Source of the DNA: a bacterium
Lineage (GTDB): Bacteria; Patescibacteriota; Minisyncoccia; Sungbacterales; GWA2-42-14
Length of the DNA stretch: 45,783 nucleotides
Direction: 5' to 3'
Assembly: GCA_030649305.1 (NCBI GenBank)
Contig: JAUSFV010000035.1
Location: forward strand, 1-45,783
Part shown: piece after piece, positions 42,080 through 45,783 of the stretch
Numbering within the stretch: position 1 is the first letter of the stretch
Layout: every line of letters starts with the position of its first letter
The notes under the pieces: generated by a model
The model's database searches: none
Told to the model about the DNA's origin: nothing
What the model saw: only the letters and a program-made list of their open reading frames with translations
Translations under genes and position numbers: made by a program

Positions 42080-42397
42080 ATGGCACAGGCAGTTTTGCTT
42101 TCTATCGGGTCTCTCCGCTTTTCCGAGAAAAAGCGAAGGGGGGTTTCGGAGAAGCGCGTTGAGGAGTTGCGGCGTCTGGTTGAGGCGGGGCGCGACCTTC
42201 CGCCCATCAGGGTGCATGCGCTTGGCGATGGTACGTATGTGGTCCGCGACGGGCGCCATCGCATCAAGGCGCATCTCGCGGCAGGAATTGATTGCATCTT
42301 TTCGATCGTTGAGAATGTAATTACAATTACGATTGAAGAAATTTTAAAACTATTCAGATGGTGCAGAAGCTTTGTTCGGATGCTGTTGAGAAAATAG
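42080..42397 (+). CDS. ParB N-terminal-like domain protein
   Basis: LPPIRVHALGDGTYVVRDGRHRIKAHLAAG. Confidence 0.85.
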   Translation: MAQAVLLSIGSLRFSEKKRRGVSEKRVEELRRLVEAGRDLPPIRVHALGDGTYVVRDGRHRIKAHLAAGIDCIFSIVENVITITIEEILKLFRWCRSFVRMLLRK

Positions 42398-42494: not shown

Positions 42495-42902
42495 ATGATG
42501 GATTTGCCTATTGAAGTGGGGGTCGCAATTATCATACGCGGAGATACCGTTTTTATTGCCCGGCGGAAAGATGGTGATTCTTTTTCGGGTTTGTGGGAAT
42601 TTCCCGGCGGGGGAGTTGAGTCGGAAGAAACCCCCATGGATTGCGTGGTTCGGGAAATGCAGGAGGAATTTGGAATAGATGTTGTAGTGGTACGGAAGTT
42701 TGAATTGGTGGATTATGTTGATAAAAAAGATGGCGCTCGTTTTCGTCTGCATAGCTTCCTTTGCCGTATTGCTGATGGTGAGCCGGAATTGCGGCCCATG
42801 CATTCGGAAATGCAATGGGTACGGCCGGAAGAGTTGGATAAGTATGAATTTGTACCCGCGGATCTGCCCATCGTTCAGCGTCTTAAAACAGAAAGAGTAT
42901 AG
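42495..42902 (+). CDS. NUDIX hydrolase
   Basis: GGGVESEETPMDCVVREMQEEFGI Nudix box. Confidence 0.94.
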   Translation: MMDLPIEVGVAIIIRGDTVFIARRKDGDSFSGLWEFPGGGVESEETPMDCVVREMQEEFGIDVVVVRKFELVDYVDKKDGARFRLHSFLCRIADGEPELRPMHSEMQWVRPEELDKYEFVPADLPIVQRLKTERV

Positions 42903-42960: not shown

Positions 42961-42989
42961 TTGACACATATAGTATTATTTGCTATAAT
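42961..42989 (+). promoter_or_regulatory. Consensus sigma-70 promoter for the Y-RNA-like/Ro60 locus
   Basis: TTGACA-17 nt-TATAAT with TGC extended -10. Confidence 0.88.
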
Positions 42990-43048
42990 AGATATATAAT
43001 CATGGGATAGCTCGTGATTAGCTGATTTACTCTTTGAAATTAAGGTTT

Positions 43049-43112
43049 CCACGGGCCGGAGTCAGACGGTTATCTTGGAATGATTACCCGTTTGGCACTA
43101 GCTTGTCCGTGG
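43049..43112 (+). ncRNA. Y-RNA-like hairpin 1
   Basis: CCACGGGC...GTCCGTGG outer stem, CAGACGG/CCGTTTG inner stem, GGCCGGAGT/GGCACTAGCTTGTC conserved strands. Confidence 0.82.
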
Positions 43113-43133
43113 TGCTCTATAGCGCTTTTCACA

Positions 43134-43203
43134 ATGGCGGGCCGGAGTTGCAGGGTTATCTATTGGTGAGATATTACCCCTGCGGCACTAACTTGTCTGC
43201 CAT
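43134..43203 (+). ncRNA. Y-RNA-like hairpin 2
   Basis: ATGGCGGGC...GTCTGCCAT outer stem, GCAGGG/CCCTGC inner stem. Confidence 0.82.
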
Positions 43204-43226: not shown

Positions 43227-43276
43227 TTTCGGGCCGAACCGCTCGGCATAGCGCCGGGCGGTAAACTTGTCTGAAA
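43227..43276 (+). ncRNA. Divergent Y-RNA-like hairpin 3, adjoining the Ro60 Shine-Dalgarno
   Basis: TTTCGGGC...GTCTGAAA outer stem, ACCGCTCGGC/GCCGGGCGGT inner stem, retains AAACTTGTC. Confidence 0.7.
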
Positions 43277-43285
43277 GGAGATACA

Positions 43286-45028
43286 ATGAGCGTACCGTTT
43301 TCGCAGTATTTCCAGACCAAGGAGACCTCGCAGTCTCAAGCGATTCCGGGAACGGATCAGGTTGAGAATTCTTCGGGGGGATTCGTATGGGCGGTGAATG
43401 ATTGGACGCGGCTTGACCGCTTCCTCATTCTGGGTACCGAAGGCGGAAGTTACTATGCTTCTGAACAGGAACTCACGATCAAGAACGCCGAGGCGGTGGT
43501 GCGTTGCATCAAGGCTGACGGCGAACGTGTCGTGAAGCGGATTGTCGAGATCAGCGAAGCGGGCCGTGCGCCCAAAAATGATCCGGCGATTTTCGCCCTC
43601 GTGATGGCGGCCGGCATGGGTGATGCGAAGACCAAGGCGGCAGCGTTTAACGCGCTGTCGAAGGTAGCTCGTTTCAGCACTCCCTTCTTCATGTTTCTGG
43701 AGCATATCCAGGGATTCAAGGGATGGGGTCGGGGGTTGTCCCGCGCTGTCTGTAAGTGGTTTAACGAGAAGGACGTCAAGCAATTGGCGTACCAATTCGT
43801 GAAGTATCGCCAACGGAATGGTTGGTCGCATCGCGATCTGTTGCGGCTCGCGCATCCCAAGCCGGCTACCCCTGCTCACAACGCGCTGTTTCGGTGGGTT
43901 GTGGCGAGTGAAAGCATGGGCGAGCGGGAAGTTTCGCGGCGGGAACGCAAGGATGGCCCGATGGTCGTGAAAAAGTACGAAGCGATCGACCGATCGCTCC
44001 TACCTCCGATCATCTCCGCGTTTGAAGCGGTCCAGCAGGCGAAGGATGCCGAGGAAGTGGTGCGGCTCATCGGTGCCAACCCCAATCTTTCGTGGGAGAT
44101 GATCCCGACGGAATTTCTGGGAGAGAAAAAGATCTGGAGGGCTTTACTTCTCGATCTTCTGCCGACCGCGCTGATCCGCAATCTCGGACGTATGACGGCA
44201 AATGGGCTTCTTAGCCCTCTGTCTGACGCCGTGCGTATCGCTGTTGAACGGCTTTCCGATGGCGAGAGTATTCGCGAGGCTCGCGTTCATCCGGTTGCTG
44301 TTCTCGCGGCACTTACGACCTATAGCGAGGGCCATGGCGCCCGCGGGGATCTCTCGTGGGATCCGGTCGGACAGATTGCCGATGCTCTTGATAACACGTT
44401 TCATCTCGCCTTCGGTAACATAACTCCGACCGGCAAGCGATTCATGTTGTGCCTGGATCTTTCAAGGTCCATGGCCGGAAGCGAGATCGCCGGGATTCCG
44501 GGGCTGACGCCTCGTAGAGGAGCGGCTGCCATGTCGCTTATCACCGCGGCAACCGAGCCAAATCATATCATCACCGGCTTCACGGCCGTTGGTAGTGATA
44601 CGGTTAGGTTTCCGGGCAGGAGCCGGGAGAATCTGGAGCTGGCAGTGTCTGTTCTTCCGATTTCGCCAAAGCAGCGTTTGGACGACGTCGTGCGCCTCAT
44701 CGAGTCGTACGGGCAGGGCAGAGTCAATGGAAAGTACGGTTTCGGCGGTACGGACTGCAGCCTGCCCATGCGTTACGCGCTTGATCGGGAAATCCCGGTG
44801 GACACCTTCGTGGTGTATACCGACTCCGAAACTTGGGCCGGGGATATCCATCCGGCGCAGGCACTTCGCGAGTATCGTCGCAAGACGGGTATCCCGGCGA
44901 AGCTCGTCGTAGTCGGCATGGTTGCGAACGGCTTTTCCATCGCCGATCCGGACGATTCAGGGATGTTCGATGTTGTCGGATTCGACACGGCGACCCCGGA
45001 GTTGATTTCCGACTTCGCAATGCGGTAG
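43286..45028 (+). CDS. rsr: TROVE-domain Ro60 (Rsr) orthologue with C-terminal vWA domain
   Basis: 'GGFVWAVNDWTRLDRFLILGTEGGSYYASEQELTIKNAEAVVRCIKADG' TROVE start; vWA 'RFMLCLDLSRSMAGS'. Confidence 0.95.
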   Translation: MSVPFSQYFQTKETSQSQAIPGTDQVENSSGGFVWAVNDWTRLDRFLILGTEGGSYYASEQELTIKNAEAVVRCIKADGERVVKRIVEISEAGRAPKNDPAIFALVMAAGMGDAKTKAAAFNALSKVARFSTPFFMFLEHIQGFKGWGRGLSRAVCKWFNEKDVKQLAYQFVKYRQRNGWSHRDLLRLAHPKPATPAHNALFRWVVASESMGEREVSRRERKDGPMVVKKYEAIDRSLLPPIISAFEAVQQAKDAEEVVRLIGANPNLSWEMIPTEFLGEKKIWRALLLDLLPTALIRNLGRMTANGLLSPLSDAVRIAVERLSDGESIREARVHPVAVLAALTTYSEGHGARGDLSWDPVGQIADALDNTFHLAFGNITPTGKRFMLCLDLSRSMAGSEIAGIPGLTPRRGAAAMSLITAATEPNHIITGFTAVGSDTVRFPGRSRENLELAVSVLPISPKQRLDDVVRLIESYGQGRVNGKYGFGGTDCSLPMRYALDREIPVDTFVVYTDSETWAGDIHPAQALREYRRKTGIPAKLVVVGMVANGFSIADPDDSGMFDVVGFDTATPELISDFAMR

Positions 45029-45031
45029 GAT

Positions 45032-45106
45032 TGTAGCACCACGGGCCGGAGTCGTAGGGTTACCTGCGATGTTCCCCTGCGGCACTAACTTGTCCGTGGT
45101 GCTACA
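45032..45106 (+). ncRNA. Y-RNA-like hairpin 4
   Basis: 15-bp outer stem TGTAGCACCACGGGC/GTCCGTGGTGCTACA, inner GTAGGG/CCCTGC. Confidence 0.82.
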
Positions 45107-45117
45107 TTGTTCTTTTC

Positions 45118-45181
45118 TGGCGGGCCGGAGTCAGACGGTTATCTTGGAATGATTACCCGTTTGGCACTAACTTGCCCGCTA
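45118..45181 (+). ncRNA. Y-RNA-like hairpin 5, near-identical to hairpin 1 core
   Basis: TGGCGGGC...GCCCGCTA; interior gggccggagtcagacggttatcttggaatgattacccgtttggcacta shared with hairpin 1. Confidence 0.82.
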
Positions 45182-45327
45182 TCATATCAGAGCCCCCTTG
45201 GCGCATACTGCGTCATGTGGGGTTTTTTTTATTTCCATCGTTCATAAAAAATAAAATCTTGATTTTTTATTTTGGAGATGCTATACTAATGAGACATTAT
45301 TCGCTCTTTTTTTCAAATGCCTTGGAT

Positions 45328-45661: not shown

Positions 45662-45696
45662 TTCCGATTGAAAGATGGAAACGAAAAAAGTGCAGT

Positions 45697-45783
45697 GGGC
45701 TGGAGCGGTGATGGGTGACACCAGCGGACTCCAAATCCGTCGGCGAATACGCCTTGGGGGTTCAAATCCCTCCCAGCCCGCCA
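45697..45783 (+). tRNA. tRNA-Trp(CCA)-like with a long variable arm
   Basis: GGGCTGG/CCAGCCC, GCGGA-CTCCAAA-TCCGT, variable CGGCGAATACGCCTT, discriminator G. Confidence 0.8.

What the first reader, a model, noticed from the sequence alone, without database searches (positions are those of the whole stretch)
43227..43285. Third Y-like hairpin abuts the Ro60 ribosome-binding site: possible autoregulatory switch
Seen: the 3' strand of the outer stem (GTCTGAAA, 43269-43276) runs into the Shine-Dalgarno (AAAGGAG, 43274-43280) ten nt before the ATG. It is the most divergent of the five but keeps the outer stem and ACTTGTC. Inference: Ro60 bound to its own leader would occlude the RBS, giving negative feedback that Y RNAs could titrate.
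Basis: inference. Interest (0 to 1): 0.75.

Follow-up and report, generated by a model that had tools for sequence, protein, structure and literature searches.

The report
Ro60 gene carries Y-RNA decoy at start
The mRNA for the bacterial RNA-binding protein Ro60 carries a shortened copy of the protein's own RNA docking site right on its ribosome-binding site, and the same placement recurs in a related bacterium and, with the docking site turned inside out, in many phages, so Ro60 probably limits its own production.

Summary
43227-43276 folds as a Y-like hairpin (-26.9 kcal/mol, z -4.0; no shuffle as stable), and its outer 3' strand GTCTGAAA overlaps the Shine-Dalgarno AAAGGAG. Rfam does not recognise it. 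A covariance model built only from real Y RNAs scores it 22.8 bits (E 8e-6 on the leader) against 74-81 bits for the four Y RNAs.

A same-family genome (Ro60 54% identical) has the same short Y-like hairpin merging with the Shine-Dalgarno. A third Ro60 (56%) has a diverged Y 3' motif, CGTTTTGC, that occurs exactly three times on its contig: in both Y RNAs and in the Ro60 leader.

Unexpectedly, 12 of 12 Stanwilliamsviridae phages and one Microbacterium phage carry a circularly permuted Ro60 site, (A/T)TGCCC-loop-GGGCCGR, on or beside the Ro60 Shine-Dalgarno. Four of its five stem pairs show two-sided changes. In two phages it sits before no other gene of ~276 ORFs scanned.

Best reading: autogenous translational control by Y-RNA mimicry, with Ro60 filling its Y RNAs first and its own leader last. 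Binding, the sign of the control and titration by Y RNAs are untested. Mycobacterium, Gordonia, Bosea and jumbo-phage leaders lack the element.

The parts
42961..42989 (+). Promoter-like site, perfect sigma-70 consensus TTGACA-17-TATAAT, upstream of the whole array
   Evidence: 12 of 12 matches, extended -10 TG
43047..43113 (+). Y RNA 1 (nematode sbRNA-like)
   Evidence: Rfam RF01656 42.0 bits; R1 79.3 bits (training member)
43133..43203 (+). Y RNA 2
   Evidence: Rfam RF01656 43.3 bits; R1 75.5 bits (training member)
43227..43276 (+). Hairpin 3: shortened Y-like (Ro60-site-like) hairpin of the Ro60 leader
   Evidence: fold z -4.0; R1 22.8 bits although not used to build R1; no Rfam match
43227..43234 (+). 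Outer stem 5' strand TTTCGGGC; followed by CGA, giving the Y consensus CGGGCCGA
43238..43262 (+). Short inner hairpin (10 bp, 5-nt loop); lacks the GGTTAYC loop motif of the real Y RNAs
43265..43276 (+). 3' half of the Ro60-site-like element: ACTTGTC plus outer strand GTCTGAAA
43274..43280 (+). Shine-Dalgarno AAAGGAG, overlapping the hairpin's outer stem
43286..45028 (+). Ro60 (Rsr), TROVE plus vWA_Ro60 domains, 580 aa
45037..45100 (+).
   Evidence: Rfam RF01656 50.8 bits
45116..45182 (+). Y RNA 5 (downstream)
   Evidence: Rfam RF01656 39.6 bits
45193..45230 (+). Likely intrinsic terminator (CCCC...GGGG then T8) closing the array
   Evidence: read from sequence; not listed by the scan (loop longer than its limit)

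Best explanation
Hairpin 3 is a cis-acting, shortened mimic of the Ro60-binding lower stem of a Y RNA, fused to the ribosome-binding site of the Ro60 gene. The promoter at 42961, the order promoter-Y1-Y2-hairpin3-ro60-Y4-Y5 and the terminator-like end suggest one transcript carrying four Y RNAs and one Ro60 reading frame. Newly made Ro60 first occupies the Y RNAs, which match the consensus better. Once they are full, spare Ro60 binds the weaker leader copy. Bound there, a 60-kDa protein sits on the outer stem that contains part of the Shine-Dalgarno, so 30S subunits cannot load and synthesis stops until new Y RNAs or other RNA ligands draw Ro60 away. Shown here: the hairpin, its overlap with the SD, its resemblance to the genome's own Y RNAs, its recurrence in relatives, and a permuted covarying version in phages. 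Inferred: binding by Ro60, repression, affinity ranking and titration.
For: Significant fold, and 22.8 bits against a model that never saw it. Same-family genome G002: GGGCCGAA, a 9-bp inner hairpin with a 5-nt loop, and outer strand GCCTAAAGG merging with SD AAAGGAGG; shuffles give such a site in 0.15% (G000) and 0.20% (G002) of trials. L004: GGCCG followed by CGTTTTGC, the diverged 3' motif of its own two Y RNAs; the 8-mer occurs on the contig only at those three places, and 23 of 100000 shuffles reproduce it. Phages: permuted site at the Ro60 SD in 12 of 12 Stanwilliamsviridae and in one Microbacterium phage, with a variant in Rhodococcus phage Trina; shuffle rate 0.03-1.1% per leader, and none of about 276 other ORF starts in two phages carries it. 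The stem covaries (4 of 5 pairs with two-sided changes, 0/500 shuffles for the covariation score). Comrade and Francob, with Ro60 95% identical, differ at the closing pair by a compensatory G-C to A-U change. The residues corresponding to Xenopus K170, R174 and H187 (recalled as RNA-binding) are present. Removing a bulge or changing conserved bases of the lower stem abolishes Ro60 binding in vertebrates (PMC4726728), so such a site is specific.
Against: No binding or expression data exist. By R1 alone the G002 (3.4 bits) and L004 (1.0 bit) leaders are not significant; they stand on motif and position. Longer folds offer near-equal or better alternatives that pair the SD with the coding region. 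The permuted phage element does not regularly form the second helix beyond the bulged C, so calling it a Ro60 site is itself an inference. Mycobacterium, Gordonia, Bosea and Agrobacterium-phage leaders, and two of three Microbacterium phages, show no such element.
Confidence: 0.62

Rival explanations
1. Hairpin 3 is simply one more Y RNA gene of the tandem array, decaying or shortened, that happens to end at the Shine-Dalgarno; it has no role in controlling translation.
For: It lies in a tandem array of Y RNAs with similar spacing and keeps the Ro60-site core.
Against: The same shortened form, without the GGTTAYC loop, sits at the same place in G002. Processing it out would remove the SD. Phages put a permuted, non-Y-shaped version at the same place.
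Confidence: 0.15
2. Ro60 binds the leader but its main effect is positive or structural: it fixes the Y-like fold, prevents the alternative in which the SD pairs with codons 8-10, or protects the 5' end of the processed mRNA.
For: The SD is predicted to be paired with the coding region in longer folds, and in the Y-like fold GGAG is mostly unpaired. A cut after Y2 would leave hairpin 3 as the new 5' end.
Against: The hairpin's outer stem lies inside the region a 30S subunit must cover, so a bound 60-kDa protein should block it. In several phages the SD directly follows or lies within the element.
Confidence: 0.13
3. An ordinary RBS hairpin that tunes translation without Ro60 (passive structure); the Y-like letters are coincidence.
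For: G+C-rich hairpins near ribosome-binding sites are common, and CM scores in G002 and L004 are low.
Against: Joint rarity in shuffles in three leaders, species-specific motif sharing in L004, and restriction of the phage element to the Ro60 gene.
Confidence: 0.1

Closest known systems
Autogenous translational control by ligand mimicry (from memory: ribosomal proteins L1, S8, S15 and L10 on their own mRNAs; E. coli ThrRS with its tRNA-like operator)
   Same: An RNA-binding protein's own mRNA carries a look-alike of its natural RNA ligand at the ribosome-binding site, so spare protein represses itself.
   Different: The protein is Ro60 and the ligand a Y RNA. The Y RNAs appear to lie on the same transcript. 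In phages the site is circularly permuted. No binding or repression has been shown.
Bacterial Y RNAs / YrlA (Rfam RF02553) and Rsr RNPs
   Same: Ro60 orthologue with adjacent Y RNAs. L004 even has a Y RNA with a tRNA-like insert that gives a partial YrlA match.
   Different: Hairpin 3 is not a free Y RNA: it lacks the loop module and overlaps the SD. Known Rsr operon control is transcriptional, by RtcR (PMC7790460); no leader control was found in the papers searched.
Nematode stem-bulge RNAs (Rfam RF01656)
   Same: The four neighbouring Y RNAs match this family above its gathering score, including the loop UUAUC in three of them.
   Different: Hairpin 3 itself does not match and has another loop.

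Membership tests
Y RNA (free Ro60-binding ncRNA) | Lower stem with CGGGCCGR 5' strand, bulged C and CUUG(U/C)C 3' strand | tested here: met
   CGGGCCGA and ACTTGTC present; 22.8 bits to R1
Y RNA (free Ro60-binding ncRNA) | Match to a curated Y or sbRNA family | tested here: not met
   hairpin 3 absent at E<=10 while the four neighbours match RF01656
Y RNA (free Ro60-binding ncRNA) | Upper-stem/loop module (GGTTAYC in this lineage) | tested here: not met
   loop ATAGC, no GGTTAYC
Y RNA (free Ro60-binding ncRNA) | Exists as a separate small RNA bound to Ro60 | not testable with these tools
   needs RNA-seq, northern blot or co-purification
Autogenous translational operator by ligand mimicry | Ligand-like structure overlaps or abuts the RBS of the gene for the binding protein | tested here: met
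   outer stem 43269-43276 overlaps SD 43274-43280
Autogenous translational operator by ligand mimicry | Arrangement conserved in relatives of the gene | tested here: met
   G002, L004, phages in permuted form; absent in Mycobacterium and Gordonia phages and the Bosea plasmid
Autogenous translational operator by ligand mimicry | Protein binds the operator in competition with its natural ligand | not testable with these tools
   needs a binding assay
Autogenous translational operator by ligand mimicry | Binding represses translation | not testable with these tools
   needs a reporter or toeprint
Ro60/Rsr protein (context) | TROVE plus Ro60 vWA domain and conserved RNA-binding residues | tested here: met

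The most novel reading that the evidence does not exclude
Ro60 genes of bacteria and phages are under autogenous translational control by Y-RNA mimics on their ribosome-binding sites. The mimic exists in two topologies: a direct, shortened Y stem in this bacterial lineage, and a circularly permuted one in actinophages.
Probability: 0.5. Interest if true: 0.82.

Novelty: new variant of a known kind. Interest (0 to 1): 0.74.

Why it matters
How cells match Ro60 to its Y RNAs is not known, to my knowledge. A leader that mimics the Y RNA would make Ro60 output depend directly on free Y RNA, and it gives a small bench system (leader, Ro60, Y RNA) in which this can be tested. The permuted phage version would also define the minimal RNA that Ro60 recognises, independent of how the strands are joined, and suggests that Ro60 dosage matters during phage infection.

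Tried and rejected
Rfam for hairpin 3: no match even at E<=10. More bacterial relatives: 387 genomes of the class, 384 of the phylum, 23 of the order and 374 of the L004 genome's phylum gave only G002 and L004. The IMG/VR viral scan failed seven times because the machine gave no answer. A Ro60 regulon: R1 on the six family genomes found only the Y RNAs plus chance-level hits, and the bipartite pattern only one unrelated extra place. Direct-topology site in phage and plasmid leaders: none clear. Permuted site in Mycobacterium, Gordonia, Bosea and Agrobacterium-phage leaders: none; Picosynechococcus GTTATCCCGCGAGGGACGGAG looks similar but fails the strict pattern and was not counted. MAFFT alignment A3 of phage leaders misplaces the loops, so covariation was counted on loop-free strings.

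Full report
WHAT IS THERE. The window is one contig of a small genome (1.02 Mb, 54 contigs). At 43286-45028 it encodes Ro60 (TROVE plus vWA_Ro60; closest solved relatives are vertebrate Ro60 and Deinococcus Rsr). Four hairpins around it match the Rfam nematode stem-bulge (Y) RNA family above its gathering score. A consensus sigma-70 promoter lies at 42961-42989 and a terminator-like element follows the last Y RNA (sequence), so Y1-Y2-hairpin3-ro60-Y4-Y5 is probably one transcript (inference).

THE OBSERVATION. Hairpin 3 is real and correctly placed. Its outer stem is TTTCGGGC (43227-43234) with GTCTGAAA (43269-43276), its inner hairpin 43238-43262, and its 3' strand shares AAA with the Shine-Dalgarno (43274-43280). 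It folds better than all 200 shuffles. Rfam does not see it, but model R1, built from eight real Y RNAs of three loci and none of the leaders (structure supported by covariation), gives it 22.8 bits, E 8e-6 on the leader, against 74-81 bits for the four Y RNAs here. It keeps the two halves of the Ro60 site (CGGGCCGA, ACTTGTC) and lacks the GGTTAYC loop of its neighbours. In vertebrates the Ro60 site is the lower stem with a bulged C, and changing either bulge or the conserved bases abolishes binding (PMC4726728).

RELATIVES IN BACTERIA. Ro60 is rare in this group: 2 of 387 genomes of the class. The second, G002, has three Y RNAs upstream of Ro60 and then, on the ribosome-binding site, CCTTGGGGCCGAAACCCGCATCCCGC..GCGGGGTGCACATGCCTAAAGGAGG, the same short design with the outer strand running into the Shine-Dalgarno, although the proteins are only 54% identical over their length. 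A third Ro60 (56%, contig of a metagenome bin labelled Bacteriovoracaceae, very low coverage, perhaps misbinned) has Y RNAs whose 3' motif has changed from ACTTGTC to CGTTTTGCTC. Its Ro60 leader reads GGCCGTTAACCCGTTTTGCCAGGAGG. The 8-mer CGTTTTGC occurs on that contig only in the two Y RNAs and the leader. Shuffles reproduce the three leader motifs in 0.15%, 0.20% and 0.02% of trials. By R1 alone the last two leaders are not significant; the argument rests on motif, position and co-divergence.

PHAGES. Phage Ro60 leaders were looked at as a control and gave an independent surprise. In 12 of 12 Stanwilliamsviridae (Streptomyces phages) and one Microbacterium phage, the ribosome-binding site is preceded by, or contains, (A/T)T-[stem]-3-7 nt loop-[stem]-CGR, typically ATGCCC-loop-GGGCCGR. 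This is the Ro60 site of a Y RNA with the strands joined at the other end: the 3' half (TTG/ATG CCC) comes first, a loop closes the outer stem, and the 5' half (GGGC, bulged C, GR) runs into the Shine-Dalgarno. Rhodococcus phage Trina has a variant with a closing mismatch. The phages' own Y RNAs, where found, have the normal order (Yaboi: CGGGCCGAAG..CCAACUUGCCCG). Shuffled leaders give the element in 0.03-1.1% of trials, and in 100 kb of two phages it precedes no ORF but Ro60. Four of five stem pairs have two-sided changes. Francob and Comrade, whose Ro60 proteins are 95% identical, differ by a compensatory change at the pair next to the bulged C.

FUNCTION. The simplest account is autogenous translational control: Ro60 fills its Y RNAs, then the weaker leader copy, and thereby blocks its own ribosome-binding site. 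The low model scores of the leaders beside those of the Y RNAs fit a weaker site (inference). The residues corresponding to Xenopus K170, R174 and H187 (recalled as RNA-binding) are present in this Ro60. What is not settled is the sign. In longer folds the Y-like form competes with alternatives in which the Shine-Dalgarno pairs with the start of the coding region: within 0-2 kcal/mol with the upstream Y RNAs included, up to about 5 without them. Ro60 binding could therefore also act by selecting a fold.

LIMITS. Nothing here measures binding or expression. Leaders of Mycobacterium and Gordonia phages, of a Bosea plasmid and of an Agrobacterium jumbo phage have no such element, so the device is not universal. 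The permuted phage element usually lacks the second short helix beyond the bulge. The IMG/VR viral scan was down throughout, so more lineages could not be sampled. Seven literature searches found no report of Ro60 or Rsr leader control; the library is open-access only.

Noticed in passing
window 43047-43113, 43133-43203, 45037-45100, 45116-45182: Bacterial Y RNAs that match the Rfam nematode stem-bulge RNA family RF01656 above gathering score, three with the UUAUC loop motif; a review states bacterial Y RNAs are not homologous with vertebrate ones (PMC4726728).
   Followed up: partly
L011, L029-L035, L039-L042, L015, L016 (phage Ro60 leaders): Circularly permuted Ro60-site hairpin on the Shine-Dalgarno of phage Ro60 genes, with covariation; found while looking for controls.
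   Followed up: yes
L004 2723-2862: Y RNA with a circularly permuted tRNA-like insert in its loop (partial YrlA match, 30.1 bits), upstream of Ro60 on a contig labelled Bacteriovoracaceae with 2x coverage, possibly misbinned.
   Followed up: partly
window 45696-45780: Rfam labels this tRNA as selenocysteine tRNA barely over the cut-off (47.9 against 47) while ARAGORN calls tRNA-Trp(cca); probably an ordinary tRNA-Trp.
   Followed up: no
L010 3825-3893: Gordonia phage Mareelih has a strong Y RNA (41 bits to R1) between its tmRNA and a tRNA-Arg gene, downstream of Ro60.
   Followed up: no
L046 680-2335: Agrobacterium phage Atu_ph07 'Clp protease-like protein' is a Ro60 homologue by tblastn (32% to Trina Ro60).
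   Followed up: no
L005 3640-4010: In G002 a long G+C-rich leader precedes a short Cys-containing reading frame just upstream of the Y RNA array; no Rfam match.
   Followed up: no
window 42080-42397 and 42498-42902: By eye, a small ParB-N-like protein and a Nudix hydrolase gene upstream of the Ro60 operon; not searched.
   Followed up: no
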